Assembly: GCF_963677005.1 (NCBI RefSeq)
Contig: NZ_OY781616.1
Coordinates: 627,501-691,500, forward strand
Direction of reading: 5' to 3'
DNA from: Maridesulfovibrio sp.
Lineage (GTDB): Bacteria > Desulfobacterota > Desulfovibrionia > Desulfovibrionales > Desulfovibrionaceae
DNA length: 64,000 bases
Shown: positions 9,486-52,123 of the stretch, piece after piece
How positions within the stretch are numbered: position 1 is the first letter of the stretch
How the letters are laid out: every line of letters begins with the position of its first letter
Notes under the pieces: generated by a model
The model's database searches: none
What the model saw: the letters and a program-made list of their open reading frames with translations, nothing else
Told to the model about the DNA's origin: nothing
Position numbers and translations under genes: made by a program

Positions 9486-10445
9486 TTATTTCAGACTGTA
9501 ATAAAAATCGGTCAGCCGCGTCAGGGCTGCGTCCGGTGTGGATGCGTAGGGTATCAGCTTAAAGGGCAGTGCCCGGACCTGTTTAAGGTAATCATGATAC
9601 TCTTTTGGGCCTATGTATTCCATATCCAGAACTGTTTTTCCGTTTTTGGCCACCTCTCCGGCCAGTCTCAGCCGGTAGTCACGATCATCAGTGCTGAAGC
9701 AGTTGAAAAGCAGGCTTTCAAGACCGACCATGTCGATTGTTTTGAAGTAGGCTTCCCTGTATTCCGGCGAGCAGGATTCAAATACACCCATTCCGTTCTG
9801 GGGGCAGATTATGAAATTGCTTCCGGCCCGTTTGCGGCAGTAGTCCGCTATGCGTACGATCAGTTTGATCATTCTGTCGGCAGTATCCTTCACGTCTTCG
9901 CCCTGTTCGTGCCAGAACCAGTATGCGTCCACTATGTCCAGATATACACCGTCAAAACCGGCTTCCAAGATGCGGTCCATGTACGGCTTCAGTGCTTTTT
10001 CCCACCAGTCCTCGCTCCAGTAGCGGACTTTGAAGTTCCCCGGCCAGTCCTTGTTTTCCGGCCCCAGAAAAGTCGGATGATTTTCATCCCATCCCTTATC
10101 CCAGTAGAAACGGTAATTTTCCGCTTCACCTATGGAAAAATAGCAGAGTACGGTTTTTTTATACCTGTGCATGATCGCTACTTCTTCGGCGGTGAATTTT
10201 CTGTTGTCCGTACCGTCCTTGGAGTAGTCGGTCACAATCAGCTGGTAGGGAGATTCGGCAATTGCAGCTGTGGAAGGATTCTGCAGCACGCAGGCCCAGC
10301 TTGAAATCTCCGGCCGTTTCGGAGTTACCCGTATGCCGTTAATTGACTCAGAGCCGTATTCTGTTCTGTCCGGGACAGGCTTTTGCGGTGAACAGGACAT
10401 AATGAGAAACAGCAGAATAATTGACAGGCTAAATTTAAATTTCAT
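9486..10445 (-). CDS. GH114/TM1410-like glycoside hydrolase, lipoprotein
   Basis: A 319-aa predicted lipoprotein. A type II signal peptide ends in LIMSC with the lipidated Cys at residue 18. The remainder is a TIM-barrel of the GH114 (endo-alpha-1,4-polygalactosaminidase, TM1410) family: SSWACVLQNP near residue 48, CYFSIGEAE near 101-109, and the strand GFDGVYLDIVDAYWFW with Asp170 and Asp173. It is divergent from the pel operon and shares the SSWAC entry motif with the PelA hydrolase protein at 11209, so it is a second, membrane-anchored copy of the same hydrolase type. It probably trims or releases the galactosamine-rich Pel polymer. The enzyme activity is inferred from family membership and context. 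Confidence 0.88.
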   Translation of the reverse strand: MKFKFSLSIILLFLIMSCSPQKPVPDRTEYGSESINGIRVTPKRPEISSWACVLQNPSTAAIAESPYQLIVTDYSKDGTDNRKFTAEEVAIMHRYKKTVLCYFSIGEAENYRFYWDKGWDENHPTFLGPENKDWPGNFKVRYWSEDWWEKALKPYMDRILEAGFDGVYLDIVDAYWFWHEQGEDVKDTADRMIKLIVRIADYCRKRAGSNFIICPQNGMGVFESCSPEYREAYFKTIDMVGLESLLFNCFSTDDRDYRLRLAGEVAKNGKTVLDMEYIGPKEYHDYLKQVRALPFKLIPYASTPDAALTRLTDFYYSLK

Positions 10446-10670
10446 TTTTTTCAGTCCGTTATGTTACAGTTTATTCCTGCTTCCTTAGCACGGACAGGAC
10501 GTTTAAAGCAATGAAATGGACAAGTCTGGAAAATCTTACGAAAAATACTTAAAAGTTAAATGTTATACTTTTCAGGTCATTGTTTTCTGTTTATATTGCA
10601 TTGGTTGAAAGTTGGAGAAGGTAATCCAACCATTTAAACGGTAAGATTATTTTGTCGGGCGGGGCGCTGG

Positions 10671-10724
10671 ACGCGGGAACATCGCGTTTGTTGCCCGCTA
10701 GTTGACTTTCTGTAAGTCAGGAGG
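10671..10724 (+). promoter_or_regulatory. Possible post-transcriptional control site in the pelC leader
   Basis: ACGCG (10671-10675) pairs with CGCGT (10683-10687), leaving GGAACAT as the loop. A second small hairpin (TGACTT / AAGTCA, 10703-10719) abuts the GGAGG ribosome site of pelC at 10720. A GGA in a hairpin loop plus a GGA in the Shine-Dalgarno is the arrangement bound by CsrA/RsmA proteins. This is a pattern-based suggestion only. Confidence 0.3.
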
Positions 10725-10729
10725 ATTTA

Positions 10730-11290
10730 GTGAAACGTTTTTTTGTATGTATTTTGTTTTTTATATTGGCCCTTGCAGGTTGTTCCGGTTCCTACATGAA
10801 GGATTATGTACAGCCGCAGGGAATTGCCAGTGACGCAAGGCTGGTGGCAGTTCTGCCTCTGGTCAATCTGACCACCACTCCCAACGCCGGAAGGATTGTC
10901 AGCGACCTGCTTTCCACCGAGCTTTATGCGTCCACCAGATTCAAGCTCATGGAGTCCACCGAGATGCTCAAACGGGTCAAAGGTGACAGTGATGACCTTG
11001 AGTTTGTAATGGAAGATGTGGTCGCGCAGAAAATAGGCAGCAAACTCGGAGTTGATACCGTGGTTTACGGTTCCGTTTCCGAGTATCAGTACAAGCGCGG
11101 TGTGAACCAGAGCCCCACGGTCGGAATCAATCTGAAAATGATTGATGTTCCTTCCGGCAAGGTTTTATGGGCTTCGTCCTCTTCTAATTCCGGAGGGTGC
11201 TTTTTCGGATGTACGGATTCCCTCAACAGCGTGGCTCAGGATACCCTGGCGGAAATGGTTCAGACCATGTCCGATACACCTGCTCAATAA
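10730..11290 (+). CDS. pelC: PelC outer-membrane-associated lipoprotein
   Basis: A 186-aa lipoprotein with GTG start (AGGAGG 6 bases upstream) and a lipobox LAGC with Cys18. The body has the PelC/CsgG-like alpha-beta fold: a strand LVAVLPLVNLT, then helix DLLSTELYAST, and the block GSKLGVDTVVYGSVSEYQYKRG followed by GINLKMIDVPSGKVLWASS. In Pseudomonas, PelC forms a dodecameric ring on the inner leaflet of the outer membrane that funnels the cationic polymer to the PelB barrel. It is the first gene of the pel operon here, whereas the Pseudomonas order starts with pelA. The next gene starts inside it. Confidence 0.88.
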   Translation: MKRFFVCILFFILALAGCSGSYMKDYVQPQGIASDARLVAVLPLVNLTTTPNAGRIVSDLLSTELYASTRFKLMESTEMLKRVKGDSDDLEFVMEDVVAQKIGSKLGVDTVVYGSVSEYQYKRGVNQSPTVGINLKMIDVPSGKVLWASSSSNSGGCFFGCTDSLNSVAQDTLAEMVQTMSDTPAQ

Positions 11291-12129
11291 TTGCGGTCCT
11301 GATCGTGGTTGGGTTCAGCCTTTTCGGATACAGGATCGCATTCGGGAAAAATCCGGCCCGGATTTCTTCCTGGGCCTGTTATTACGGCAGTGCCGACCGA
11401 ACTTCAGACCTCTTGAAGTTCGATCTCTGCGTGCTTTCGGAAACCGGGCAGGACCCGGCACCGCTGCGTTCTCAAGGGCGTAAGGCGCTTGCTTACATCA
11501 GTCTCGGAGAATTGCACGGGAACAGTCAGTATCTTGAAGAGGCTAAAAAGCAGGGGTTGTTATCCCGTTATAATGAGAATTGGGATTCATGGGTTGTGGA
11601 TGTGCGCCGTCCGGAATGGCGGAAACTGCTTTTCGACAAATTGATTCCGAATGCGCTTGCCCGCGGATATGACGGGCTTTTTTTTGATACGCTTGATTCT
11701 CCGATAGACATGCAGCGCCGTGATCCGGATGCCTACAAAGGCACCGAGCGGGCCTGTGTGGAACTGGTCAGGGCCATTCGCGAAAAATTCCCAGATCTCA
11801 TTCTCTGCCAGAATCGCGGCTTCGAGATAATACGGCGTACTGCCCCGTATCTTGATTACCTGCTTATCGAGGGGCTGACCTGTTCCATGGCCCCGGACTC
11901 GAAGGAAGCCTCGGCAGTTCCCCATGCAGACCGCGATTTTCTGCTCGCCAAAACCGCAGAGGCGGTAAAAGCGAATCCGAAACTTGTTGTCCTCAGCCTG
12001 GATTACGCCCCGGCGGACGACTCATTTAATATCGGCAGCGCCTGTGAATTTTCCAGAAAACAGGGGTTTGTGCCGTATGTAAGCACTCCGGCCCTTGATG
12101 AGGTTTTTGTCCATGCGCAATGTTTTTAG
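11209..12129 (+). CDS. pelA: PelA hydrolase half: GH114-type domain with N-terminal membrane anchor
   Basis: A predicted 306-aa protein covering only the glycoside hydrolase part of PelA. I see a membrane segment at about residues 25-45 (IIAVLIVVGFSLFGYRIAF), SSWACYYG at 53-60, ALAYISLGE at 93-101, and YDGLFFDTLDS at 154-164 with Asp160 and Asp163, as in PelA hydrolases. The family cuts de-N-acetylated GalNAc-rich polymers. The start is uncertain. The ATG at 11209 follows GGAGGG but lies inside pelC. A GTG at 11305 would remove most of the anchor and has no good ribosome site. The stop lies 17 bases inside the next ORF, which carries its own signal peptide, so the split is not a simple frameshift. 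Confidence 0.85.
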   Translation: MYGFPQQRGSGYPGGNGSDHVRYTCSIIAVLIVVGFSLFGYRIAFGKNPARISSWACYYGSADRTSDLLKFDLCVLSETGQDPAPLRSQGRKALAYISLGELHGNSQYLEEAKKQGLLSRYNENWDSWVVDVRRPEWRKLLFDKLIPNALARGYDGLFFDTLDSPIDMQRRDPDAYKGTERACVELVRAIREKFPDLILCQNRGFEIIRRTAPYLDYLLIEGLTCSMAPDSKEASAVPHADRDFLLAKTAEAVKANPKLVVLSLDYAPADDSFNIGSACEFSRKQGFVPYVSTPALDEVFVHAQCF

Positions 12130-14200
12130 TCTGCTTATTCTGCTGGCTGTGATCTGTGCCGCTCTTCCTGCCTCAGCCGGACCTGATCCGGTCAAGCGCA
12201 AGGTCCTTGTCCTTTACGACAGTTCCGATGAAAGAACTGCGCAGGAGAACCTTTTTGTCGAAGGTTTTGCCATGCCTTTGAATTATCTCGGACTGCTTTA
12301 CGAAATCCGTGATGTGGCAAAGCGTCCTTTGCCCGGCAAAGGGGAGATGGAGCAGTTCGGAGCCGTCTTTACAACATTTGCTGATGATTCCATGGCCGGA
12401 CCGAATGAGTATCTGAAGTGGCTGGTCCGTCAGCAGGCCGAGGGCAGAAAGGTTGTTATTGCCGGTAATCTCGGGGCCTATAGCGGAGAGGACGGGGAAT
12501 CGGCCGATAAGGAGCTGATCAGCAAAGTTTATTCAAACATGGGGTTCAGCTACAAGGGTGAGGTTGCAGCCGAGAAAATAAAGTTGAAATTCGGATATGT
12601 TGATCCCGAAAATATGAATTTCGAGCGCAGGCTGCCGCTGTTTCCCAGAGAAGACATCCTGCTCGTCCCGTCTTCAAAGAAGTCCCGGTCGTGGGTTACT
12701 GTGGATGATGCCAATCGTCCTGGAGAACCCGGCACTGTTGTCGGCATAGGTCCCGGAGGAGGTTTCGCTCTGGACGGATTCATGCGCTGGCAGGACCCCG
12801 GTGATTTTCGCAAGAAATGGTATATGAATCCCTTCGAATTTCTGCGCCTTTCTCTGGGGCTGGAAGGCGTTCCGGCCTTTACGCCGACTACGCTCAACGG
12901 ATTGCGGGTTGCGTTTGCCCATATTGATGGTGACGGTTTCGCCGGATACACGGAAGTTGACGAGAACAAATGCTGCGTTGAAATAGTGATGGAGCGGATT
13001 TTCTCCCGCTATGATTTTCCCAACTCTGCATCGGTCATAGCCGGGGAGATCGACCCTGCCGTAAAGGGCAGTTTGAATAATATTGAACTGGCCCGGACTC
13101 TTTTTGAACTGAAGAACGTTGAGCCTGCCTCGCATTCCTATACCCATCCTTTCGCATGGGACCCCCGGCTTCGCGATTCCAAGGAATATGCTGCCGAGTT
13201 CGTTGTCGGCCAGTACGAAGTGTCGGGATACAAGTTCAATGCCCGTTATGAGATTGTGGATTCGTGCCGCTATATCTCGGACAATCTCGCTCCGCCGGAA
13301 AAACCGTGCCGGGTGCTGCTCTGGTCGGGCATGTGCGATCCACTATCCAATCAGGCCGAAATCGCCGCAAAGGCCGGAATACTCAACCTGAACGGCGGGG
13401 ACACGGTTATGGATGCGCATCGTGATTCCTATTTCGGGGTTTCTCCTCTTTATCGCGCTCTGGGGGATTACAGCCAGATTTATACGGGCCAGGCCAACGA
13501 GAACATCCTCACCGATCTCTGGTCGGGGCCGTATTTCGGATTCCGAAACATTGTCGAAACCATGAAGCGCACGGGCTCACCGCGCCGGGTAATGCCCATC
13601 GACATCTATTATCATTTTTACAGCGGCGAAAAATTTGCCTCGCTCAAGGCGCTTGAGGATGTTTACGAGTGGGCCCTGTCTCAGGACAGTGCAAGGGTCT
13701 ATGCCTCATCGTACATCAGGATGGTAAACGGATTTCTGAGCGGAAAGATGGAAAAGGTCGCTCCGGACCGTTTTGTGTTTTCGGACTATCGCGATTGTCT
13801 GAGTGTGCGGCTGGACGGAAAGGGCAGAGTGCCGGACCTGCGCAATTGTTCCAATATTCTGGGGTATGATGTTCTTCCGGAGGGGACATTCGTGCACTTG
13901 CGTCCCGGCACGAAAAGAGCGGAACTGGTTTTGAGCGACAACATGCGCGTTAATGACGGTTTCCTGTTCATTAAATCCAGTTCCGGATGGGTGCGTGATT
14001 TTCAGAGGATTCCTTCCGGAGCGCGGTTTGTTCTGGATTGTTTCAGTAAGGGCCGGGTGACTCTTTCCGGTCTTGTGCCGGGGGCAAAGTACAGGGTCAT
14101 CAGGAAGGACGGCCCCCCTCTTGAACTGAAAAGCAGCGAAGGCGGGGAAGTTTCTGTCAGAGATATTTCTTCCGGCCCGGTGGAGATTGTCGGACTTTGA
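12113..14200 (+). CDS. pelA: PelA deacetylase half: CE18-like polysaccharide deacetylase
   Basis: A 695-aa exported protein matching the C-terminal two thirds of PelA. It has a clean signal peptide (residues 1-22, ending PASAG). I start at the ATG 12113 because TGAGG lies 9 bases before it. In-frame TTG and ATG codons exist 18 and 15 bases upstream. A Rossmann-like N-terminal region (RKVLVLYDSSDE) precedes the NodB-related deacetylase core with HIDGDGF (His270, Asp272, Asp274) and SHSYTHP (His341, His345), the metal-binding Asp and HxxxH. The C-terminal beta-rich region (about 560-695) resembles the carbohydrate-binding end of PelA. It should de-N-acetylate Pel in the periplasm, making it cationic. 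Confidence 0.88.
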   Translation: MRNVFSLLILLAVICAALPASAGPDPVKRKVLVLYDSSDERTAQENLFVEGFAMPLNYLGLLYEIRDVAKRPLPGKGEMEQFGAVFTTFADDSMAGPNEYLKWLVRQQAEGRKVVIAGNLGAYSGEDGESADKELISKVYSNMGFSYKGEVAAEKIKLKFGYVDPENMNFERRLPLFPREDILLVPSSKKSRSWVTVDDANRPGEPGTVVGIGPGGGFALDGFMRWQDPGDFRKKWYMNPFEFLRLSLGLEGVPAFTPTTLNGLRVAFAHIDGDGFAGYTEVDENKCCVEIVMERIFSRYDFPNSASVIAGEIDPAVKGSLNNIELARTLFELKNVEPASHSYTHPFAWDPRLRDSKEYAAEFVVGQYEVSGYKFNARYEIVDSCRYISDNLAPPEKPCRVLLWSGMCDPLSNQAEIAAKAGILNLNGGDTVMDAHRDSYFGVSPLYRALGDYSQIYTGQANENILTDLWSGPYFGFRNIVETMKRTGSPRRVMPIDIYYHFYSGEKFASLKALEDVYEWALSQDSARVYASSYIRMVNGFLSGKMEKVAPDRFVFSDYRDCLSVRLDGKGRVPDLRNCSNILGYDVLPEGTFVHLRPGTKRAELVLSDNMRVNDGFLFIKSSSGWVRDFQRIPSGARFVLDCFSKGRVTLSGLVPGAKYRVIRKDGPPLELKSSEGGEVSVRDISSGPVEIVGL

Positions 14201-17022
14201 ATATCAAGCTCTGGCGGGTACTCCTTTTCGTGCTCATCATTGTCGGGAGCACCTTGCTGATCTATCCCTTCCCAAGGGATATGGTGGAACTGTACCTTGC
14301 CGGGGGGGAGATTTCCAAGGCATCCGAACTGCTGGACCGTCTGCTTGAGGAAGACCCTGACGATCCCGGTCTGCTTTCGGTTGCCGCAGATGTCTATATT
14401 TACCGAGGCATGCCGGACAAGGCTATTACCTGCCTTAACCGGGTGCTTGCAAAAAAGCTGGATAACAAGGAAATTCTGGCAAAGCTGGCTTTATTTTACG
14501 AATGGAGTGTCATGCCGCGGGAGGCCATGCACACGTGGGAAAGGCTGGCTGCGATACTGAAACAGGATGAGGAGGCTTTCAGGAAACTGATCATGTACTA
14601 CCGCTATTTTGATATGCTTCCGCAGGAGATTGACGCGATTCTGCATCTGAACACCCTTTTGGTCGAAAAGCCCGGGATTGATTTTTTCACAGAGCAGTTG
14701 AATCGGGAAATTTTCAGGCTGGGAGCCGAAAAGACTTCAAAGAGCGAAGATCCATACCTTGATTATCTCATCCGGGGTATCTTTGTGGTCGGGGAGCAGT
14801 TTCGTGCCGCTGCTGATTCCGGGACAGTGATCAATTCGCTCCAGTACATGATTTATGTGATGGAATATTTCGTCTCCATGGACAGGGTGGAGGAAGGGTA
14901 CAATTTCGCCCGGCAAATGGACCAAAAGATGGGCGGGACCAATAATCGGCTGCAACTTGTCAGGGTGCTGGGTTGGGCCGGAGAGTTTGAGCAGGGGTTG
15001 GAGATTGCCCAAAGGCTCTTTAAGGAAAACCCGGACAACACTGCGCTGCTGACGGAGATGGTATGGATATCCCGAAGTGCCGGAAGGTTGGATGTGGCTG
15101 AAACCGTTCTGGAGAAACTGGTCAGCATCGAGCCCGGCAACAGCAGACATCAGGAAGAACTCGGCCGCGTCTATATGGAGTCCGGGCGCTACGACAAGGC
15201 TGTTGATTTGTTCAGAAAGATGGCTGAGAAGCTGAACAACTGGTTCAAGTACGCCCATGATATGTTAAGGGCGGCCCTGTACAGTTCGGACCCGAAACTC
15301 ATGGCTCAGGTAGTGGCCGAGACCGAAGATCTGGATATTGACGATTCAGAATATATGCGGACCAGAGCCGATGCATTGCTGACCTTGAACAGACCCTACG
15401 ATGCCTATGATGTTTTGAAGCGGTTGATTCAGCGACCTGATGTCGGCGTGGCCGATTACGAGCGTATGGTCGATGCGGCCATGGCGACCAAAGACAGCAG
15501 ACTCATCGCAGACACGATTGACGCAGCACTTGAATTCAGTCCCGGCAATATTGATCTGATGCGCAGGGGGGCTGAGGCATGGCGTGAGGCCGGAGACCCT
15601 GTAAAGGGATATGAGCTTTACCGTAAGGTGGTGCAAAAGGCCGGGCTGGAGGAAGACGTCATAAATATGCTTCTGACCGCGTCTGACACCAATAATCTGA
15701 AGCTGGCCAGAGAAGCCGCGAAATATGCGCTGCATTTGTATCCGAAGAATGTGAAGGTCATAGCCCAGGCAGGCGAAATAATGCTTTGGCTGAATTCGCC
15801 CAAGGATGCTTATCCCTTCTACCGCAAGGCAGCGATACTTACCGGAGGCAGCCGTGAATTCGTAATGAAGCTGGTGCAGGTGGCTTCATATACCGGAGAC
15901 AGTAAAATTTTCAGGGATGCGGCCTTGACGGCAATCCGGCTGCGTCCGGATGATGAACAGGTGGCTATGCTCGCGGCGTCTGTCTTATCCGCAGCCGGAG
16001 ATAATGACCGGGCAGCAAAGCTTTTATCCAAATTTTCCAGCAGGAAGGACGAACAGCTCGACATGCTGCTCAAATGGGCTGAATTTGCGGATGGCGCCGG
16101 GCTGAACGAAGAGGCCTATCGCATTTATGACCGGCTTTACACTGCCGGATACAGGAAAAAGAAGGTTCGCAAGGAGTTGGCCAGACTGGCCGGCTGGACC
16201 AACCGTCCGAAAGTAGCAGCCCGACTTTACGGAGAGATTGCGGATGAAGCCCCGAGCAATTTCGATCTGGCCGTACAGGCGGGTGGCGCTTATTCCGATG
16301 CCGGAGAATACGCCCGTGCTGTGACCTATTATCAGAGGGCGCTGGCCCTGAAGCCGGGTGACAACGCTTTGCGGCTCAAGCTGGCTGAGACTTACGGTTT
16401 CGCCAACATGAATGCCGAACGTATTAAGCTTTACACGGAACTCTGGCGTGAAGGTCTTTTGCCTGAGAACGGCAGGGTTGAGCTTGCAAGGGCATATCTG
16501 GATGCCAAGGAACCGGACTCGGCCTTGAAAATTCTGGAACCGTACGCAAATCTCAAGCGGTTGCCCCGTTTTGAAGGGTTTCTGCTGGCTTCGGCTCTAC
16601 AGCAGGCCGGTCGGAAAGCAGAGGCTTCGGCCATATATGAAAGGCTTGGAAAGGAATATGGAACGGACAGTGTCTTTCTGTCCCGCCTTGGAGCGGAGGC
16701 CCTTTTCAACAACGCGCCAACTGAGGCTTACGATCTTTTCAATTCCGCGCTCAAGATCGATCCGCAGGACCGCACTGCTCTTAAGGGGTTGGGAATAATA
16801 CTTGCTGACAGGCAGCAGTATAAAAGGGCTGTATCCAAATTCCGGCATTATCTGAAACTTGTTCCCGATGATGCCGAGGCCCGCTATCAGCTTGCAGAAA
16901 TTTATCGTCTTCTGGGGCGCGAAGCCGAGGCGGACAGACAGTATCGGCTGGCGGAGAGGTTGATTTCAAGAAAAGCGGAAAAGAATATTTTTGCTAGAAA
17001 AGTCAAGTTGCTTGACAGGTAG
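14197..17022 (+). CDS. pelB: PelB scaffold half: membrane-anchored TPR protein
   Basis: A 941-aa protein with one N-terminal membrane helix (about residues 5-25) followed almost entirely by tetratricopeptide repeats to the end. There are roughly 20 helical pairs with repeated signatures such as a YDKAVDLFRKM-type helix and PxxxxxLxxLG turns. It starts at a TTG overlapping the stop of the deacetylase (TTGA), with GGAG 11 bases upstream. In Pseudomonas the same TPR region is fused to the outer-membrane barrel and holds PelA. Here the polypeptide ends after the repeats, and the barrel is encoded by the next gene 5 bases downstream. It is probably anchored in the inner membrane and extends across the periplasm. 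Confidence 0.86.
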   Translation: MNIKLWRVLLFVLIIVGSTLLIYPFPRDMVELYLAGGEISKASELLDRLLEEDPDDPGLLSVAADVYIYRGMPDKAITCLNRVLAKKLDNKEILAKLALFYEWSVMPREAMHTWERLAAILKQDEEAFRKLIMYYRYFDMLPQEIDAILHLNTLLVEKPGIDFFTEQLNREIFRLGAEKTSKSEDPYLDYLIRGIFVVGEQFRAAADSGTVINSLQYMIYVMEYFVSMDRVEEGYNFARQMDQKMGGTNNRLQLVRVLGWAGEFEQGLEIAQRLFKENPDNTALLTEMVWISRSAGRLDVAETVLEKLVSIEPGNSRHQEELGRVYMESGRYDKAVDLFRKMAEKLNNWFKYAHDMLRAALYSSDPKLMAQVVAETEDLDIDDSEYMRTRADALLTLNRPYDAYDVLKRLIQRPDVGVADYERMVDAAMATKDSRLIADTIDAALEFSPGNIDLMRRGAEAWREAGDPVKGYELYRKVVQKAGLEEDVINMLLTASDTNNLKLAREAAKYALHLYPKNVKVIAQAGEIMLWLNSPKDAYPFYRKAAILTGGSREFVMKLVQVASYTGDSKIFRDAALTAIRLRPDDEQVAMLAASVLSAAGDNDRAAKLLSKFSSRKDEQLDMLLKWAEFADGAGLNEEAYRIYDRLYTAGYRKKKVRKELARLAGWTNRPKVAARLYGEIADEAPSNFDLAVQAGGAYSDAGEYARAVTYYQRALALKPGDNALRLKLAETYGFANMNAERIKLYTELWREGLLPENGRVELARAYLDAKEPDSALKILEPYANLKRLPRFEGFLLASALQQAGRKAEASAIYERLGKEYGTDSVFLSRLGAEALFNNAPTEAYDLFNSALKIDPQDRTALKGLGIILADRQQYKRAVSKFRHYLKLVPDDAEARYQLAEIYRLLGREAEADRQYRLAERLISRKAEKNIFARKVKLLDR

Positions 17023-17027
17023 TTCAA

Positions 17028-18905: not shown

Positions 18906-18961
18906 TCTGAATATTCACGGCAGTTATTTCCGAAACCGTAGTTACGGCAAGGCGGAGAGGC

Positions 18962-20371
18962 ATGTTTAAAGAGAAAGCGCTAAATCAAAAATTCGGGCTT
19001 TCAAAATATTTTGAGGTCTTGCTCGGACTGGTGACCATTACTGCGGTCAACATCATTTTCTGGCGTAGCGATCCCGGATTCATCAACGTTTCTCCGCATC
19101 CTTTCTGGCTGGTGGTTCTGCTTGTGGCTGTTCGTTACGGATTCGTCGGCGGGGCTTTTGCCGGCGGGGTGTCCGGATTGATTTTTTTCGGTTTCAAACT
19201 CATCTCCATACCTGAGCTTGATCTTGCCGACTTCAAGTCCTTGGCCATGTGGGGAAAACCGGTTCTTTTTTTTCTTGTCGGAGTTATTATCGGCGAGATG
19301 CGCCAGTTGCAGATCAAGGAATACGAAGAACTGAGCGAAACCTGCGATACATACAAGGATGCTTTTGAAAAGATAAAAGTAAAATTCGATGTACTCAGTG
19401 AGGCCAAGCAGGAAGTGGATACTCGGATCCTGTCGCAGGAAAGTACATTGGGAACCTTGTATGAAGCGGCTCAGGGTTTGAGAAGCCTGAGCATTGACAG
19501 CATTTATCCGGCGGTGTTGGAAATCCTGCGGGATTTCATGGATGTTGAGGAGTGTTCAATTTATCTTCTGGAGGGGGATGAATTCAGGATGGATACTGCC
19601 ATAAGGCACGGGAAAGGATATCTGCCCGATGTTGTTCCTTTCGGGGAAGGCTTGATGAGTCTTGCCGCAAGCAGCAAAAGGTCCGTTTCCATCCGCGATG
19701 TAGCCGATACCGATAGCATGCCGGGAGGGATAATAATTTCAGCTCCCATACTGGCGGATAACCAGAGGCATGTCGTGGGGGTGGTCAACGTAGAGAAAAT
19801 GCCTTTTCTCAAGTTCACCAGTGATTCTGTCCGGGTAGCCGGTCTTGTTGCCGACTGGTGCGGCAGCAGCGTCGAGAACGCCACCGTTTTTGCCGCAACC
19901 AAACACAAGCTTATCGCCGATGAGTCCATTGACGCCTATACGTATGAATATTTTAAGAGAAGGCTCAAAGAGGAGTTTGTGCGTGCCCGGCGCTATGAGC
20001 TTGACCTTTCACTTATCATGCTTGAGTTTCCAGGGCTTTCCAATGCGTCCGATGAAGGGCGGGATGAAGTCCTGATGGCTTTCAGCATGATTCTGAAGAG
20101 CCAGATACGTGAAATAGATATCCTTTTCATCAGCGACAAGCCGGGATCATTTTATCTTATTCTGCCGACGACCCCTTCGTCCGGAGCGAGAGTTGTAGTC
20201 AACAATATTCTCAATTCCTTTAAGGCCTTAAGCGTTATGGCTTTTGAGACCGACCAGAACCTTGTGGAGCTGCGGGCCGGTGTGGCCGGTTATTTTCCCG
20301 GTATGGAAGATCCGATGGAAATGGTCAAGGCGGTACAGGAGGATGTTATAAGTGTCCTTTTTGCGGAGTAA
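18962..20371 (+). CDS. pelD: PelD: membrane c-di-GMP receptor with GAF and degenerate GGDEF domains
   Basis: A 469-aa protein. GGAG lies 4-5 bases before the ATG. Parts in order: a membrane domain with about four helices (residues 15-115), a coiled coil (about 118-160), a GAF domain (about 170-325), and a GGDEF-fold domain (about 330-469). The diguanylate cyclase active site is lost: where GGDEF should be there is DKPGSF. The upstream RxxD inhibitory-site motif is kept (Arg383-Glu-Ile-Asp386). This matches PelD, which binds c-di-GMP at that site and switches on Pel polymerisation by PelF. Regulation of this locus by c-di-GMP follows from that. Confidence 0.9.
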   Translation: MFKEKALNQKFGLSKYFEVLLGLVTITAVNIIFWRSDPGFINVSPHPFWLVVLLVAVRYGFVGGAFAGGVSGLIFFGFKLISIPELDLADFKSLAMWGKPVLFFLVGVIIGEMRQLQIKEYEELSETCDTYKDAFEKIKVKFDVLSEAKQEVDTRILSQESTLGTLYEAAQGLRSLSIDSIYPAVLEILRDFMDVEECSIYLLEGDEFRMDTAIRHGKGYLPDVVPFGEGLMSLAASSKRSVSIRDVADTDSMPGGIIISAPILADNQRHVVGVVNVEKMPFLKFTSDSVRVAGLVADWCGSSVENATVFAATKHKLIADESIDAYTYEYFKRRLKEEFVRARRYELDLSLIMLEFPGLSNASDEGRDEVLMAFSMILKSQIREIDILFISDKPGSFYLILPTTPSSGARVVVNNILNSFKALSVMAFETDQNLVELRAGVAGYFPGMEDPMEMVKAVQEDVISVLFAE

Positions 20372-21467
20372 GGTTGTAAGGGCTGCCCGCATCAAGCTGG
20401 CCTTTGCTTTTGTCGCCGCCTACATTTTCGAGGCTGCTGCGCTTGCTCTTTACCTGTTGAGGGGGGAAGGATCATATTTCATTTACGTGGCGCTGGCTGC
20501 ACATGTAATTTCCGCCTTTTCTTTTGTCCTTTTTACGACTGCAAAACCGAGGGCCCTGCCGGGAATAGGTTTTTATTATCCCAGACTGGCGGCTCTGTTC
20601 ACATTGTTTATGCCTGTTCTCGGCCTTGTCGGTATTTCCGTGACCCTTTTCGTAGGAAAGGTCTGGATGAAGAGTCACGGGCTGGCCGAGGAATACCGGG
20701 AAAAATCGTATGAGGGCCGCGTTGTGGATGTGGACCTTCCCACGGATATTACCGAATTTCTGTACGATGAGGTTGATGTCCATCCCATAGCGGATATTCT
20801 GGCCGGAGATGATGTCGGCATGAAGCGGGGGGCAGTCAACCTGTTGCGGCGAATCGGGTCTGCTGAGGCTGTAAAACTGTTGCGAAAGTGCCTTTCCGAT
20901 GAAAATTCTGAAGTCCGTTTTTATGCCCACACGGCGCTGACCAGGCTGGAAGAGGATTATGCCGAGTCCATGGACAAGGCCAGGTTCCGGGTCCAGCGTT
21001 ATGAGAGTGCTTCGGCTTATGCCGAGCTTGGCTCCACTTATCGCAATTATTCCCGCAGCGGACTGCCGGAAAGAAATATGCAGGAGCAGGCTATGAATTT
21101 TGCCTGCGGTTCCTGGGAAACCGCTGTTGAAAAGGACCCTGAAAATCAGGACTATAAACTTCGTCTTGCTGAATGCATGTGTGAAAGCGGACGATATCCG
21201 CAAGCCTTTGATATCTACAAGGAAACGGTACATTTTCCTGATCTGGAACTGGAATCGCTGCTCGGTATCTGCAGAGTCTTTTTTGAGCAGGGTAATTTCA
21301 TAGCTCTTTACAGGCAGGTTCTTGATATGCGGAGCAAGCCTGCTCCTGTTTCCTCTGATCCTTTCAAACTCGGTTCTTATAATTTCTGGCTTTCGTTTTT
21401 TGACGTAGAAGAAGATGAGCAGGATGAACTGCCTGATGATTTTGATACTGATGGAGTTGTTTTATGA
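20352..21467 (+). CDS. pelE: PelE: membrane protein with helical-repeat cytoplasmic domain
   Basis: A 371-aa protein starting at GTG, with AGGAGG 9 bases upstream and a 20-base overlap with pelD. Two or three N-terminal membrane helices (about 15-110) are followed by an alpha-helical cytoplasmic region. This region holds a HEAT-like stretch (GAVNLLRRIGSAEAVKLLRK, about 155-200) and TPR-like helices (about 220-330), as in PelE. The tail is acidic. PelE is part of the PelD-PelE-PelG inner-membrane complex that recruits the polymerase PelF. Position and overlap with both neighbours strengthen the call, since PelE is poorly conserved in sequence. Confidence 0.84.
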   Translation: MSFLRSKVVRAARIKLAFAFVAAYIFEAAALALYLLRGEGSYFIYVALAAHVISAFSFVLFTTAKPRALPGIGFYYPRLAALFTLFMPVLGLVGISVTLFVGKVWMKSHGLAEEYREKSYEGRVVDVDLPTDITEFLYDEVDVHPIADILAGDDVGMKRGAVNLLRRIGSAEAVKLLRKCLSDENSEVRFYAHTALTRLEEDYAESMDKARFRVQRYESASAYAELGSTYRNYSRSGLPERNMQEQAMNFACGSWETAVEKDPENQDYKLRLAECMCESGRYPQAFDIYKETVHFPDLELESLLGICRVFFEQGNFIALYRQVLDMRSKPAPVSSDPFKLGSYNFWLSFFDVEEDEQDELPDDFDTDGVVL

Positions 21468-22981
21468 GTGCCGGGGAACAGAAAGATCAGGTTTACGATG
21501 TCTGCCTGCTGCTGGAGGGAACTTATCCTTTTGTAGCCGGTGGTGTTTCCACCTGGATTCATAACCTGATCAAGGGCATGCCAGAACTGAAATTTACTGC
21601 GGTATGCATACTGGCCTCTTCAAAGGAAAAAGCAGAGTACCGATATGACGTTCCCGACAACTTTGCTGATCCTAAGATCATATACCTGCATGATAAAGTT
21701 GAGATAAAGAGGAGCTTTTTCAATCGTATTTCCGCCGCTGACATGGAGAAGCTGCGCAAGTTTCATTACCGGCTGGATCGTAATGAACTGGATATGATGC
21801 TTGATATTGTGAAGTCTTTCAGGGATGGCCGGTATCCGTTATCAGAACTGTTTCATGGCAAGAGGGCTTGGGATTTGCTTGTGGAACGCTACAAGCCGCA
21901 GGTAAATCAGGAATCCTTCATCGACTATTTCTGGACTTTTCGTTTTACCCATCTTCCCATTTTCAAAATGCTGCCTCTGGACCTGCCCAAGGCACGGGTC
22001 TACCATACAATTTCCACCGGTTATGCCGGGCTGCTGGGGGTTGTGGCCAGGATCATGACCGGACGCCCGCTGCTGCTTACGGAACATGGAATATACGTTA
22101 AAGAACGCAAAATCGAGATTTCACAGGCCGAATGGGTTTACCGCAAGGAGGACGAACGGCTGCGGGTGGAGAGCAAGCTGGGAGCTTTCCAGACATTCTG
22201 GATACGCATGTTCGAGCAGTTGGGCAGGCTGTGTTATGATTACTCTTCGGCCATTTTCACTTTGTACGAAGGAAACAGACAGTTGGAGATTCAGGAAGGG
22301 GCGGACCCGGACAAAATAACCATTATTCCCAATGGAATAAATCTGCAGAATTTTCTTGGGCTCAGGCCTGTGGATCACGATTACGCAGGGCAGACCGAGT
22401 TTGCGATCGGCTTTGTGGGCAGGGTGGTCCCGATCAAGGATGTGAAGACATTTTTGCGTGCAATCAGAATAGTTTGCGCTAAAATTGACAAATTGAAGGT
22501 TTTTATAATGGGCCCCACCGAGGAAGATGAGGAATACTACGAGGAATGCGTCAACCTCGCCAGCCTTCTGCACCTCGAAGATGTTGTGGAGTTCACTGGC
22601 AAGGTCCGGGTGACGGATTATCTGCCCAGGCTTGATCTGATTGTACTTACCAGCATCAGCGAGGCTCAGCCTCTGGTTATCATGGAAGCCAATTGTGCCG
22701 GTGTTCCGGCCGTGGCTTCGGATGTGGGTTCCTGCAGGGAGCTGCTTGAGGGGCGGACTGTGGCCGACCAGTCGTTAGGACCGTCCGGGATTGTTACCAA
22801 GGTGGCTGATCCGGGAGATACCGGAGAGGCAATTTTAAGGATACTGACCAGCCCCATTCTGCGCCAGCGGATGTCGCGGGCCGGCATCGAGAGGGTGAAG
22901 ACTTTCTATAAGGAATCCGATCTCAATGAGAAGTATCTGGGCATTTATAAGGACTACGGCGCAATGGATGATCTGGAGTAG
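21464..22981 (+). CDS. pelF: PelF: cytoplasmic GT4 glycosyltransferase (Pel polymerase)
   Basis: A 505-aa protein, the normal PelF length, starting at an ATGA overlap with the pelE stop. It is a GT-B enzyme: N-terminal glycine loop EGTYPFVAGGVSTWIHNLIKG, mid-region TEHGIYVKERKIEI (a strongly PelF-like stretch), IPNGINLQNF, the sugar-nucleotide domain GFVGRVVPIKDVKTFLRAI, and the acceptor/nucleotide helix SISEAQPLVIMEANCAGVP with the E-x7-E motif. It polymerises UDP-linked N-acetylhexosamine into Pel on the cytoplasmic face under PelD control. This is the most confidently recognised gene of the cluster. Confidence 0.95.
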   Translation: MSAGEQKDQVYDVCLLLEGTYPFVAGGVSTWIHNLIKGMPELKFTAVCILASSKEKAEYRYDVPDNFADPKIIYLHDKVEIKRSFFNRISAADMEKLRKFHYRLDRNELDMMLDIVKSFRDGRYPLSELFHGKRAWDLLVERYKPQVNQESFIDYFWTFRFTHLPIFKMLPLDLPKARVYHTISTGYAGLLGVVARIMTGRPLLLTEHGIYVKERKIEISQAEWVYRKEDERLRVESKLGAFQTFWIRMFEQLGRLCYDYSSAIFTLYEGNRQLEIQEGADPDKITIIPNGINLQNFLGLRPVDHDYAGQTEFAIGFVGRVVPIKDVKTFLRAIRIVCAKIDKLKVFIMGPTEEDEEYYEECVNLASLLHLEDVVEFTGKVRVTDYLPRLDLIVLTSISEAQPLVIMEANCAGVPAVASDVGSCRELLEGRTVADQSLGPSGIVTKVADPGDTGEAILRILTSPILRQRMSRAGIERVKTFYKESDLNEKYLGIYKDYGAMDDLE

Positions 22982-22984
22982 CAT

Positions 22985-24355
22985 ATGGCCGGAATAGGAT
23001 TTGAACTCAGAAAGATGCTGCGCAAGGACAGTTACCTTGCCGAGATGTCCGCCTATCTTTATGCGGCAATGGTTTCTTCCGGTCCGTGGCTGATGAGCGT
23101 GCTTTGCCTGGCTGTACTGGGGCTCTATTCCTATTCCGGGTTTTCCCGGCTGGATCAGGATATTTTCAGAACGACCATTGTGTATGTATACGCATTCACT
23201 CTCATTTATGTCGGGTTCATTCAGCTGGTTGTAACCAGATATCTGGCCGACAGATTTTACCTCAACGATACGAAATCAACCATGACGGCTTTCTGGACCG
23301 GATCGTTGATTGTTCTGGCTATAGGTGCCGTCATCGGTGGCGGCGGAATATGGTTTTTCGAGTTGCCGATGACCTATAAGATTATAGCCGTGGTTCTTTT
23401 CCTTATTGTGGCCATGATCTGGATGGCCATGATATTTCTTTCCGCTGTCAAGGATTTCAGCTCCATTGTGCAGGCTTTCGCTATCGGCACCAGTGTCAGT
23501 GTGGGGGGAGCTTTTTTTCTTTATCCGATAATGGGGCTGGATGGATACCTGCTTGGCTACACAGTGGGGCAGGCCGTGATATTCTTCTGGCTGCTGGCCA
23601 GACTGCTGGCCGAATTCCCTGCCGGAAGGGTCTGGGACCCGGCAATGCTTACCTATTTTATAAAATACTGGGAGCTTGCACTTATCGGTCTGTTTTTCAA
23701 TATGGCCATATGGATTGATAAGATCCTGTTCTGGTTTGCTCCGGATTCCCGTATGGTGGTGCCGTACCTGCGTACTCATAACATGTACGAAGGGCCTATC
23801 TTTTTCGCCTATCTGACCATTGTTCCTTCACTGGCCATTTTTCTGGTCAAGGTGGAAACAAATTTTTATGAGCACTATCACGATTATTTCGCCAAAATTG
23901 TTTCCAAAAAAGATTTCTCCAGCATCATGGAAGAGAAAAAGGCTATGATTTCCATGCTGCGTGAAAGCCTGCGCGAAATTCTTATTATACAGGGAGCATT
24001 GACCGGGCTGTGCATATTCATGGCTCCGGAGTTTATAGCCACAGTGGGGCTTTCCCCATTGCAGAAACCGCTGCTTCAGGTTGCGCTGGTCGGATCGCTG
24101 CTTCAGGTGCTGCTTTCCGTTGCCGTAATTATCCTTTTCTACTTTGACCTTCGCAAGGAAGTACTGGCTGTTACACTTGTTTTTCTGTTCAGCAATGCCG
24201 GGCTCAGCTGGCTTTCCATCCAGCTTGGTTTCACTTTTTACGGCTACGGTTATTGCTATTCCTGCCTTATTTCTCTTATGTGCGCTTTTTTCCTTGTTTC
24301 GAAAAGTGTGGATAATCTGGAATATATAACTTTTTCCAGTCAGCCGTTGGCTTGA
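22985..24355 (+). CDS. pelG: PelG: inner-membrane polysaccharide transporter of the Pel system
   Basis: A 456-aa, 12-helix membrane protein of the MOP/polysaccharide-flippase type. The opening GIGFELRKMLRKDSYLAE followed by SSGPWLMSVLCL is characteristic of PelG. It starts at an ATG 4 bases after the pelF stop. With PelD and PelE it forms the synthase complex that moves the growing chain across the inner membrane. Confidence 0.94.
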   Translation: MAGIGFELRKMLRKDSYLAEMSAYLYAAMVSSGPWLMSVLCLAVLGLYSYSGFSRLDQDIFRTTIVYVYAFTLIYVGFIQLVVTRYLADRFYLNDTKSTMTAFWTGSLIVLAIGAVIGGGGIWFFELPMTYKIIAVVLFLIVAMIWMAMIFLSAVKDFSSIVQAFAIGTSVSVGGAFFLYPIMGLDGYLLGYTVGQAVIFFWLLARLLAEFPAGRVWDPAMLTYFIKYWELALIGLFFNMAIWIDKILFWFAPDSRMVVPYLRTHNMYEGPIFFAYLTIVPSLAIFLVKVETNFYEHYHDYFAKIVSKKDFSSIMEEKKAMISMLRESLREILIIQGALTGLCIFMAPEFIATVGLSPLQKPLLQVALVGSLLQVLLSVAVIILFYFDLRKEVLAVTLVFLFSNAGLSWLSIQLGFTFYGYGYCYSCLISLMCAFFLVSKSVDNLEYITFSSQPLA

Positions 24356-24378
24356 TGTTTTTGTCGGGGAGGACAGAA

Positions 24379-25344
24379 ATGGATAAGAAAACGTGTCTTG
24401 TTACCGGATGTGCCGGGTTTGTCGGGAGTCATTTGACAGCCGCCCTGCTTGCTGCCGGGCATGATGTAGTGGGTGTGGACAATTTTTTTACCGGTTATGA
24501 GCACAATATGGCCGGATTCAGGGATCACCCCGGATTCGAGTTTCACGAAGTCTCGATCACCGAAAAAGGCCTGCTTGAAAGATTCAAAGACAACCACCCG
24601 GAGCTTGACGTGGTCTTCCAATTGGCTGCCATCGTAAGTGTTCCGTATTCTGTTGAACATCCAGAGTTGACCATGGAGGTCAATTTCGAGGCCAATGAGC
24701 GTATGCACGCTTCGGCACGGAAGCTCGGGATGCGTGGATTTGTTTTCGCCGGATCGGCAGCAGAGTACGGAGAAGAGGACAGGCTGCCGGTCAGGGAAGA
24801 GTATGCGGATGAGGCAACCCAACTGAGTCCGTACGGAATTGCCAAGTACAAATCATCTTTTTTGATAGAGGCGAGCGGTTTCGGATGCTCCTTGCGGTTT
24901 TTCAACATTTTCGGTCCACGGCAGGACCCGACCAGCCAGTACAGTGGTGTTATATCAAAGTTTGTGGACTTCGGGCTTGCCGGGAAGAATATGGTGATTT
25001 TCGGGGACGGAGAACAGACCAGAGATTTTATTTACGTGGACGATGTGGTCAGCGCTTATCTTATTGCCGCAGGTCTGGACAGCGAGGGCCGCGGCCCACT
25101 GACCGGAATTTACAACGTGGGGACCGGAAGCAGTATTTCCGTGCTCCGTCTGGCCGGTATAGTGGCAAAGCTGACTTCCGCTCCTACGGAAATCGAGTTC
25201 CGCCCGGAACGAGCAGGGGATATCAAACATTCGTACGCTGATGTGACCAGAATTACGGGCAAGGGGTTCAAGGCGGAGGTCCCGTTTGAAGATGGCCTTG
25301 CCCGGACTGTTCGCTGGGCGGCCGATGAGTCCGGCAAGGATTGA
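24379..25344 (+). CDS. pelX: NAD-dependent UDP-sugar 4-epimerase, PelX-like
   Basis: A 321-aa extended short-chain dehydrogenase. The Rossmann motif GCAGFVGSH is near the N-terminus, with acidic NAD-binding VDN after strand 2. The catalytic Y-x3-K is in SPYGIAKYK. The start is ATG 24379 with GGGAGG 6 bases upstream, not the upstream TTG that is still in frame. It follows pelG by 23 bases. PelX is known in several pel clusters as a UDP-GlcNAc C4-epimerase that supplies UDP-GalNAc. The same role is inferred here. A specificity for UDP-Glc or uronic acids cannot be excluded from sequence alone, and the window has a separate GalE. Confidence 0.82.
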   Translation: MDKKTCLVTGCAGFVGSHLTAALLAAGHDVVGVDNFFTGYEHNMAGFRDHPGFEFHEVSITEKGLLERFKDNHPELDVVFQLAAIVSVPYSVEHPELTMEVNFEANERMHASARKLGMRGFVFAGSAAEYGEEDRLPVREEYADEATQLSPYGIAKYKSSFLIEASGFGCSLRFFNIFGPRQDPTSQYSGVISKFVDFGLAGKNMVIFGDGEQTRDFIYVDDVVSAYLIAAGLDSEGRGPLTGIYNVGTGSSISVLRLAGIVAKLTSAPTEIEFRPERAGDIKHSYADVTRITGKGFKAEVPFEDGLARTVRWAADESGKD

Positions 25345-25517
25345 TTTTAGCCGGTTCCGTTTGCGTTCTGCATCTGTCCTATCAAGACCGGCAACGATTT
25401 TTCCGGCTGGCAGTCGGTCTGTATTTCTGACCTGTTAAACACTGTTCAGCGCAATTTTTCCTTTATTATGTGCTGTTTAGCTGATGAACGCAGCCATATC
25501 TACAAAAGGTTTATTTG

Positions 25518-26582
25518 ATGAATGAAATTGAAAACACTAAAACGCTGAATCCTCAGATCAAGGATGCTGCTATCCGGTATACCAAACGGCTCTACAGCAG
25601 GACGGAAGATAATGAATTGATTCGGGCGCTGATGAAAGAATCATTTAAGAGGGTATATAAAAGAATGGTTCTTGAACCTGATGAATTTCAGCCGAAGCCC
25701 CGCCCGGTAGATATTGAGCCCTGGCATGGCAATAAGCCGGAAGGCCCCCGTGATTTTTTGAAATCCAAGGTTGTGCTTCCGTCACTTCCTCAGGTCCTGC
25801 TGGAAATTCAGCGGGTCATAAAAGACCCGGAGAGTTCCGCTGCCGATCTTGCCAGGGTGATAAGCAAAGACCCGAAGCTTGTTGCAGCTATCCTGCGGCT
25901 GGCCAACAGTGCCATGTACGGTTTTCAGACCGAAGTTGACACTCCGTCCCGGGCAGTTGCTCTTCTTGGTTTCAAGCAGGCCGGTTCTCTGGCTTTGGGG
26001 ACTGTCTCGCTGAGTCTTTTCAAGCGGTCGAAATCATCGGCCGTTCTGCCTGTCGAGAAGTTCTGGAAGCATTCCATTGCCTGCGGGGTTATTGCTCAGG
26101 AACTTGCTCGTGTGGCCGGACTTGGGGACCCGGAACGTTTTTTTGTGGGAGGGATGCTGCACGACATCGGTCTTTATGTAGTTTTCGAGAGCAGTTCCGG
26201 ACTTGCTGTTGAACTGCTTGATTATGCCCAGAACAACGGCAAAAGTCTCTACGCTACGGAGCAGGCTGTACTGGGATTTGACCATGCCACACTTGGCGGT
26301 GTGATTATTCAGGATTGGAATTTCCCGCAGCAGCTTATTACTGCTGCCGCAGGGCATCATAATCCGGAACAGGCTGACAGTGATATCAATGCCGGGGTAG
26401 TACACGTTGCTGATTTCATCTCCAGAGCATTGGGATATGATCTCGGCGTATCTGCTGTGCTGGGGTTCATTTCTACTGAAGCATGGAAACAGATCGGCAT
26501 ATCCGGGGAGCAGATTGTGGGAATGATGCCTGATATACAGGCGAACATAGAGGAAATTTTTAAGATACTGAGCCCCGCCTGA
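25518..26582 (+). CDS. HDOD-domain protein, first of tandem pair
   Basis: A 354-aa protein with an HDOD domain (about residues 85-290). It opens with KVVLPSLPQVLLEIQRVIKDP and SKDPKLVAAILRLANSAMYG, and an HD pair (MLHDIG) is retained near residue 215. The N-terminal 80 residues are a helical region shared with the next gene. The start is the ATG at 25518 (AAAGG upstream) and not the in-frame TTG just before it. HDOD proteins are regulatory scaffolds in stress, motility and c-di-GMP signalling. It sits 173 bases after the last pel gene, so a signalling link to the polysaccharide is possible but unproven. Confidence 0.88.
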   Translation: MNEIENTKTLNPQIKDAAIRYTKRLYSRTEDNELIRALMKESFKRVYKRMVLEPDEFQPKPRPVDIEPWHGNKPEGPRDFLKSKVVLPSLPQVLLEIQRVIKDPESSAADLARVISKDPKLVAAILRLANSAMYGFQTEVDTPSRAVALLGFKQAGSLALGTVSLSLFKRSKSSAVLPVEKFWKHSIACGVIAQELARVAGLGDPERFFVGGMLHDIGLYVVFESSSGLAVELLDYAQNNGKSLYATEQAVLGFDHATLGGVIIQDWNFPQQLITAAAGHHNPEQADSDINAGVVHVADFISRALGYDLGVSAVLGFISTEAWKQIGISGEQIVGMMPDIQANIEEIFKILSPA

Positions 26583-52087: not shown

Positions 52088-52123
52088 TAAATGAATAGAT
52101 GCGGGTATGAAATCTATTGTTTC

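What the first reader, a model, noticed from the sequence alone, without database searches (positions are those of the whole stretch)
9486..25344. A complete pel exopolysaccharide locus in a sulfate-reducer-type genome
Seen: consecutive genes matching PelC, PelA, PelB, PelD, PelE, PelF, PelG and a PelX-like epimerase, all on the plus strand, with a divergent GH114 lipoprotein. Known: Pel is a c-di-GMP-regulated biofilm polysaccharide best studied in Pseudomonas. Inference: this anaerobe makes a Pel-like amino-sugar matrix. Gene order differs from the Pseudomonas pelABCDEFG (pelC first). Relevance to sulfide corrosion and biofilms is direct.
Basis: partly seen in the sequence, partly recalled or inferred. 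Interest (0 to 1): 0.75.

Follow-up and report, generated by a model that had tools for sequence, protein, structure and literature searches.

The report
Sulfate-reducer biofilm sugar operon, split-gene variant
A sulfate-reducing bacterium carries a complete set of genes for making and exporting Pel, a sticky sugar polymer known from Pseudomonas biofilms, but two of the machine's big proteins are each made as two separate pieces, a rearranged version shared by its relatives.

Summary
The locus is real and intact: ten tightly packed plus-strand genes (10730-25344) and a divergent lipoprotein gene (9486-10445). PelF and PelG pass curated models; deacetylase, hydrolase and PelC match solved Pel proteins; PelD, PelE and the porin are confirmed by profile or predicted structure. 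The 'GH114' lipoprotein is closest to TM1410, family GH191. Split-PelA loci lie on one side of the deacetylase tree, fused Pseudomonas-type loci on the other. Window-type PelD is in 30 of 288 family genomes, 16 of the 17 listed genus genomes. Each of 14 non-genus Pel genomes searched whole shows exactly one such hydrolase, GH166-type (7) or GH191-type (7); the genus has both. The porin's SPOR domain occurs in the genus and, faintly, in one sister group. PelD keeps the RxxD c-di-GMP motif but lacks the third arginine that Pseudomonas and Bacillus PelD need; a control shows that position varies in related proteins, so c-di-GMP control is likely but unproven. A new variant of a known system. Product and corrosion link untested.

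The parts
9486..10445 (-). Divergent lipoprotein, putative endo-galactosaminidase of GH191 (TM1410/TIGR01370 type); putative catalytic D170 and E243
   Evidence: TIGR01370 226 bits, over cut-off 181; TM1410 structures E 5e-43; lipobox-like start and motifs read from sequence
10730..11290 (+). pelC, outer-membrane lipoprotein ring subunit
   Evidence: phmmer to PelC 9h80 E 1.8e-12, also 5t0z, 5t11, 5t10
11197..12129 (+). pelAh, free-standing PelA hydrolase domain (GH166-type); true start perhaps GTG near 11269 (inference); putative catalytic D164 and E225
   Evidence: PelA hydrolase 5tcb E 7.7e-28; positions
12095..14200 (+). pelAda, the rest of PelA with the CE21 deacetylase; H276, D278, D280, H347, H351, H507 match published catalytic residues
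   Evidence: PelA 9cgy E 2.6e-69, 4.8e-99 by profile; invariant in 7 of 7 rows
14197..17022 (+). pelB part 1, TPR scaffold, 941 aa, with hydrophobic N-terminus
   Evidence: TPR models; position and homology in relatives
17028..18905 (+). pelB part 2, SPOR domain (about 43-110) + TPRs + 16-strand barrel
   Evidence: PF05036 34.2 bits, cut-off 21; 16 strands in model; best match PelB 9h80_M, Foldseek E 3.4e-14, Z 26.4 over 355 residues
18962..20371 (+). pelD, membrane part + GAF + degenerate GGDEF; RxxD at R383/D386; N415 where Pseudomonas has R402
20352..21467 (+). pelE, HEAT and TPR repeats after a hydrophobic N-terminal part
   Evidence: hhalign to canonical PelE probability 99.9, E 1.8e-32
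21464..22981 (+). pelF, GT4 glycosyltransferase
   Evidence: NF038011 PelF equivalog 513.6 bits, cut-off 100
22985..24355 (+). pelG, inner-membrane exporter
   Evidence: PF16933 476 bits, cut-off 29
24352..25344 (+). pelX-like nucleotide-sugar epimerase
   Evidence: PF01370; 6wjb/6wj9 E about 2e-48, recognised by recall as P. protegens PelX
25515..26582 (+). HDOD-domain gene, conserved downstream neighbour, possible accessory regulator
   Evidence: PF08668 208 bits; HDOD gene after pelX in 12 of 12 genus loci
26720..27838 (+). second HDOD-domain gene, tandem paralogue (48% identical)
   Evidence: PF08668 163 bits; identity

Best explanation
A functional Pel exopolysaccharide operon of a distinct split architecture. 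Inferred working order: the epimerase supplies UDP-GalNAc; PelF polymerises it; PelG with PelD and PelE moves the chain across the inner membrane; the TPR protein guides it through the periplasm; the separate CE21 deacetylase partly deacetylates it; the separate GH166-type hydrolase trims it; the PelC ring and the SPOR-TPR-barrel porin export it; the GH191 lipoprotein probably cuts or remodels Pel at the envelope. PelD probably gates the synthase by binding c-di-GMP through its RxxD site. Shown by computation: component identity, conserved catalytic residues, domain splits, predicted fold of PelD and the porin, conservation across the genus. Inferred: chemistry of the product, ligand of PelD, SPOR binding to peptidoglycan, roles of the two hydrolases.
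For: Curated PelF and PelG models far over cut-off; PelA deacetylase, PelA hydrolase and PelC solved structures matched by sequence; PelD and porin models best matched in Foldseek by P. aeruginosa PelD and PelB and again by VIA-align (there PelD rows tie in Z with isolated GGDEF domains but align 257-269 residues against about 145); PelD and PelE profile matches to canonical loci; full order in 12 of 12 further genus loci; PelD in 30 of 288 family genomes. Gaps between the ten genes are 56 bases or less, several overlap.
Against: No polymer or expression data. PelD lacks the third arginine (N415). No c-di-GMP riboswitch over Rfam's threshold and no promoter above chance. PelD model of middling confidence (pLDDT 78, pTM 0.55). 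In GH191 activity was shown for the environmental enzyme, not for TM1410, the one closest here (PMC12054363, passages).
Confidence: 0.85

Rival explanations
1. The machine is Pel-related but makes a different amino-sugar polymer, since the epimerase, PelF and the deacetylase have diverged.
For: Product was not measured; the deacetylase is about 29-35% identical to the fused PelAs in the list; PMC7112194 (passages seen) warns that divergent operons may make other polymers.
Against: Catalytic residues of deacetylase and both galactosaminidases conserved; each of 14 Pel genomes examined outside the genus keeps one galactosaminidase-type gene; epimerase among PelX-type and other UDP-sugar epimerases.
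Confidence: 0.12
2. PelD in this lineage no longer uses c-di-GMP, uses it weakly, or uses another cyclic dinucleotide, so the operon is regulated differently.
For: N or K replaces the third arginine in 30 of 30 family PelDs and in 21 of 22 split rows; alanine there abolishes binding in P. aeruginosa (PMC2170427, passages) and B. cereus (PMC7112168, section 10 read).
Against: RxxD kept in all these rows; among 17 GGDEF proteins of the phylum that fitted the RxxD search pattern, of 25 loci, the same position is K 8, R 7, Q 1, N 1, so arginine is not obligatory next to an RxxD.
Confidence: 0.25
3. Broken or vestigial locus.
For: None found.
Against: All frames intact; 54-80% protein identity kept over the genes of genus relatives L023, L027, L028; order kept in 12 of 12.
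Confidence: 0.02

Closest known systems
Pseudomonas aeruginosa pelABCDEFG
   Same: All seven functions present; PelF, PelG, PelC, PelD, PelE, PelA and PelB domains recognisable by sequence, profile or predicted fold
   Different: pelC first; PelA split between hydrolase and the rest; PelB split into TPR part and porin; SPOR on the porin; epimerase at the end; GH191 lipoprotein; PelD third arginine replaced
Bacillus cereus pelDEADAFG with separate pelAH and galE (PMC7112168, sections 6, 10 and part of 12 read)
   Same: Deacetylase and hydrolase on separate genes; divergent hydrolase and epimerase beside the operon
   Different: Gram-positive set described without PelB or PelC; B. cereus PelD keeps R395
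Pel loci of syntrophic Seep-SRB1a/1g (PMC10553843, passages seen)
   Same: Sulfate reducers with a conserved pel operon
   Different: Only PelA, E, F, G and a PelD-like protein are named in the passages; domain splits not described there
pelB fission clade of PMC7112194 Fig. 5(iii) (legend seen, figure not held)
   Same: PelB divided
   Different: Where it breaks there is not stated. In 19 fused-PelA loci here, by position, PelB is 284-363 + 901-1116 aa, whereas the window type has a TPR part of mostly 800-970 and a porin part of 488-720 aa
GH191 (TmGH191, Env-GH191; PMC12054363, passages seen)
   Same: Divergent lipoprotein hydrolase matches by sequence and by an Asp/Glu pair
   Different: Here a lipoprotein tied to a Pel operon

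Membership tests
Pel exopolysaccharide system | PelF glycosyltransferase | tested here: met
   NF038011 513.6 bits, cut-off 100
Pel exopolysaccharide system | PelG exporter | tested here: met
   PF16933 476 bits, cut-off 29
Pel exopolysaccharide system | PelA deacetylase (CE21) with catalytic residues | tested here: met
   9cgy E 2.6e-69; H276, D278, D280, H347, H351, H507 invariant in 7 of 7, set against PMC12022489 (passages); H507 placed by residue offset; the acid-orienting residue E723 of P. aeruginosa was not checked
Pel exopolysaccharide system | Single bifunctional PelA | tested here: not met
   two genes
Pel exopolysaccharide system | PelC lipoprotein | tested here: met
   9h80 PelC E 1.8e-12
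Pel exopolysaccharide system | PelB porin with 16-strand barrel | tested here: met
   16 strands in model; PelB 9h80_M Z 26.4, rmsd 3.5, 355 aligned
Pel exopolysaccharide system | Scaffold and barrel in one PelB polypeptide | tested here: not met
   two genes 14197-17022 and 17028-18905
Pel exopolysaccharide system | PelD fold with GAF and degenerate GGDEF | tested here: met
   GGDEF motif degenerate
PelD c-di-GMP receptor | RxxD motif | tested here: met
   R383/D386; 64 of 64 rows (one row, L091, is an active-type cyclase), 30 of 30 family rows
PelD c-di-GMP receptor | Third arginine (R402 in P. aeruginosa, R395 in B. cereus) | tested here: not met
   N415
PelD c-di-GMP receptor | c-di-GMP binding | not testable with these tools
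   needs a binding assay; the control leaves it open
Pel exopolysaccharide system | PelE | tested here: met
   hhalign 99.9, E 1.8e-32
Pel exopolysaccharide system | Product is partly deacetylated alpha-1,4-GalNAc | not testable with these tools
   no polymer data
PelX epimerase | UDP-GlcNAc C4-epimerase activity | tested here: inconclusive
   6wjb/6wj9 E about 2e-48 but 6dnt is better, 5e-50, and 7ys8 close, 1e-46
GH191 | TM1410-type sequence with Asp/Glu pair | tested here: met
   D170, E243
SPOR domain | Pfam SPOR model and beta-alpha-beta-beta-alpha-beta order | tested here: met
   34.2 bits, cut-off 21; element order 41-118 in the model; that this is the SPOR order is recalled
SPOR domain | Binding to denuded peptidoglycan | not testable with these tools
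   recalled property of SPOR domains

The most novel reading that the evidence does not exclude
Sulfate reducers run a second kind of Gram-negative Pel machine in which the two covalent couplings of the Pseudomonas machine (hydrolase to deacetylase, inner-membrane scaffold to porin) are absent; in the window's genus the free porin is instead pinned to peptidoglycan by its own SPOR domain, which could confine Pel export to sites of cell-wall cleavage such as the septum or poles; the hydrolase has become an exchangeable part (GH166 replaced by GH191); and PelD reads its cyclic dinucleotide through a remodelled site.
Probability: 0.3. Interest if true: 0.65.

Novelty: new variant of a known kind. 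Interest (0 to 1): 0.5.

Why it matters
[quoted passage not shown] This lineage is a natural comparison in which the two are separate and the hydrolase can be exchanged for another family, so the need for coupling can be tested directly. A porin with its own predicted wall-binding domain suggests that export sites can be placed on the cell surface. It also gives biofilm work on sulfate reducers a defined gene set, although no corrosion link was shown.

Tried and rejected
Tried without result: Rfam scan at gathering thresholds for a c-di-GMP riboswitch (only rRNA and a distant TPP element); promoter scan of 10400-10800 (2 promoter-like sites, 1.2 expected) and alignment of five upstream regions (no clear conserved operator by eye; two of the five are the same genome); terminator scan after pelX (3 found, 2.9 expected). 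No Pfam PelD-specific model appeared for the window PelD at E 0.01, as PMC7112168 also says of B. cereus PelD.

Considered and dropped: (1) that PelB fission marks this lineage alone; one search shows 19 fused-PelA loci with a two-piece PelB by position, others in three pieces or cut by contig ends. (2) that loss of the third PelD arginine proves loss of c-di-GMP binding; the control (17 of 25 loci fitted the pattern) shows K about as often as R. (3) that SPOR compensates for the PelB split in general: of 9 non-genus porins scanned singly with Pfam (L021, L031; L032, L035, L036, L037, L039, L040, L043) 0 showed SPOR, although 17 of 22 did while only 16 of those 22 are of the genus, so at least one other carries it. 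(4) that the hydrolase is missing in some family genomes; the whole-genome search found one in each of 14.

Limits: the named loci came from a scan with a split-type query, best 80 of 90, so split/fused counts are not frequencies. The tree is a quick search with LG+G4, and the program flagged long branches and uneven composition. Not in the tree: L022, L028, L076 (same genome as another row, or short) and L024, L025, L029, L030 (no deacetylase in the stretch); L047 (ambiguous frame), L051, L082, L094 (cut at the 5' end) are in the tree but in no group. L091 is an active-type cyclase, not PelD. In one search two rows of the PelD check were read in a wrong frame and minus-strand loci were left out; one search replaces that part. 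PF03537 scores the GH166 type only at 49-60 bits in the non-genus genomes (cut-off 27), so a still more diverged hydrolase could be missed. One search covered 285 of the family's genomes and lists only some of those without a match. PMC12054363 gives the PelA acid/base as Glu223 where PMC12022489 mutated Glu218; I followed the alignment. 'Maridesulfovibrio' is an inference: genus genome G516 has one contig of 4,289,847 bases, which I recall as the length of M. salexigens DSM 2638.
Full report
What is there. From 10730 to 25344 ten plus-strand genes follow each other with overlaps or gaps of at most 56 bases, and a lipoprotein gene diverges at 9486-10445. In order: pelC, pelAh, pelAda, pelB-TPR, pelB-porin, pelD, pelE, pelF, pelG, epimerase. 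The genome is one contig of 4,258,610 bases and carries DsrA, so 'sulfate-reducer-type' holds. PelF has one full-length match in the genome, itself; the other six matches are partial, at 18.8-30.2 bits.

Identity of the parts. PelF passes NCBIfam's PelF equivalog (513.6 bits, cut-off 100) and PelG passes PF16933 (476 bits, cut-off 29). PelC matches solved PelC. The 701-residue protein matches solved PelA without its hydrolase part (E 2.6e-69; 4.8e-99 by profile), and the preceding 310-residue protein matches the PelA hydrolase domain (E 7.7e-28). Catalytic residues described for PelA in PMC12022489 (passages seen) have counterparts H276, D278, D280, H347, H351 and H507, invariant in 7 of 7 aligned rows; E723 was not checked. 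PelD and PelE were tested against the proteins at the same positions in canonical loci: profile-profile probability 99.9 for both. The predicted PelD (pLDDT 78) has P. aeruginosa PelD as its seven best Foldseek matches. The predicted porin (pLDDT 83) has 16 barrel strands and P. aeruginosa PelB as best match (E 3.4e-14; Z 26.4, rmsd 3.5, 355 aligned), with BcsC and 4y25 (recalled as PgaA) next.

PelA and PelB are each two genes. PelA is cut between the hydrolase and the rest. PelB is cut late, leaving a 941-residue TPR protein with a hydrophobic N-terminus and a 625-residue porin that begins with a SPOR domain (34.2 bits, cut-off 21), whose predicted elements at 41-118 run strand-helix-strand-strand-helix-strand. 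The divergent hydrolase is closest to TM1410, which PMC12054363 (passages seen) places in the new family GH191; that paper showed activity for the environmental GH191 enzyme and failed to show it for TM1410. The in-operon hydrolase is closest to PelA, GH166.

Relatives. Among 79 named loci and 12 unnamed family loci, loci with a separate deacetylase and loci with fused PelA fall on two sides of one branch of the deacetylase tree: 20 split rows, 61 fused rows, one change, SH-aLRT 100; 85 rows in all, 4 in no group. The split side holds Desulfovibrionaceae and other records titled Desulfovibrionales, Deltaproteobacteria, Desulfobacteraceae, Proteobacteria and Candidatus Anammoxibacter (Planctomycetota). 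The fused side holds mostly gamma- and betaproteobacteria and Campylobacterota, with single Deferribacterota, Aquificota and Desulfonauticus rows, so locus type does not simply follow species. A divided PelB is not unique to the split side, but its break differs. PelG is in 13 of 99 family genomes sampled; window-type PelD is in 30 of 288 family genomes and in 16 of the 17 genus genomes listed. In 297 genomes drawn from the phylum 22 matched the PelD profile at E 1e-30; apart from the window only one, G102, with an inner stop, matched over nearly the full length, the rest being partial GAF-GGDEF-type matches. All 12 further genus loci fetched show the order pelC to epimerase, then one or two HDOD genes.

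Hydrolase exchange. In the 14 Pel-bearing family genomes outside the genus, a whole-genome search with PF03537 found exactly one match each. By place, seven are the in-operon GH166 type (G075, G094, G098, G491, G492, G083, G487; the last two judged only by adjacency to the deacetylase) and seven the GH191 type (G021, G481, G482, G020, G024, G556, G010; all found again with TIGR01370). The genus has both: the own genome has two PF03537 matches, both here; GH191 was found in 16 of 16 Pel-bearing genus genomes, and pelAh in the window and the 15 other genus genomes examined. In 285 family genomes TIGR01370 matched in 27 at E 1e-20, 25 of them over the curated cut-off; 23 of the 27 are Pel-bearing, four are not (G014, G031, G032, G531). 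Outside the family, L037, L042 and L044 carry the GH166 type, and L039 neither within the stretch held. The simplest reading, an inference, is an in-operon GH166 that GH191 has replaced in some lineages while the genus keeps both. The genomes are related, so 14 of 14 is fewer independent cases.

SPOR. Of 33 porin rows, a profile built from five genus porins matched 17 rows, standing for all 16 genus genomes, at 118 bits or more (the five builders included), and 4 rows, three genomes of a sister group, at 18-36 bits; the other 12 rows did not match at E 10. Pfam found SPOR in 17 of 22 porins of alignment A9. No paper linking SPOR to a Pel-type porin turned up in two searches (listings seen), which cover only the open PMC library.

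PelD ligand site. At the place of P. aeruginosa R402, where alanine abolishes binding (PMC2170427, passages; B. cereus R395, PMC7112168, section 10 read), 41 of 42 canonical-locus rows have R (one of the 41, L091, is an active-type cyclase; L101 has K), while 21 of 22 split rows have N or K and L044 has R; 30 of 30 family rows have N (23) or K (7). RxxD is kept in all 64 and all 30 rows. As a control, GGDEF proteins of the phylum that fitted an RxxD search pattern, 17 of 25 loci, have K 8, R 7, Q 1, N 1 at that place. So the site differs from known PelDs, and whether binding is kept, weakened or altered is open.

Literature. Pel in sulfate reducers, pelB fission and pelA rearrangement, and a separate hydrolase in Gram-positives are in print (PMC10553843 passages; PMC7112194 passages; PMC7112168 sections 6, 10 and part of 12). 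One paper in the library holds both 'Maridesulfovibrio' and 'exopolysaccharide' (listing only). I saw no description of the split Gram-negative PelA, the SPOR porin or the GH166/GH191 exchange in the results of searches; figures and supplements, where operon maps often are, were not seen.

Verdict. A complete Pel locus, expected in function, distinct in architecture: a new variant of a known kind, interest 0.5.

Noticed in passing
25515-27838: Two tandem HDOD genes follow the epimerase; 1 or 2 HDOD genes sit there in 12 of 12 further genus loci. The genome has 13 HDOD matches in all. Possible accessory regulator of Pel.
   Followed up: partly
L048, L062, L066: Three loci titled Coxiellaceae have two fused pelA genes in tandem; L048 and L066 are contigs of one record set, so that genome seems to hold two pel loci.
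   Followed up: no
L041, L043, L046: In this group pelF, pelG and the epimerase lie on the opposite strand to pelC-A-B-D, so the locus faces itself.
   Followed up: no
L037: A Candidatus Anammoxibacter record (Planctomycetota) carries the split-type pel locus.
   Followed up: partly
G075 (L031): This genome has a second full-length match to the deacetylase profile elsewhere.
   Followed up: no
L115: The one near-full-length window-type PelD found in the phylum sample outside the family has an inner TGA.
   Followed up: no
G093: One listed genus genome lacks the PelG, PelD, deacetylase and GH191 matches.
   Followed up: no
1-2315: End of a 23S rRNA gene and a 5S rRNA gene, so pelC lies about 8 kb after an rRNA operon.
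   Followed up: no
52111-52213: TPP riboswitch on the minus strand.
   Followed up: no
8010-9368: Membrane protein with a histidine-rich loop, looks like a nickel/cobalt exporter by eye; a relative sits beside the GH191 gene in L027 and L028 too.
   Followed up: no
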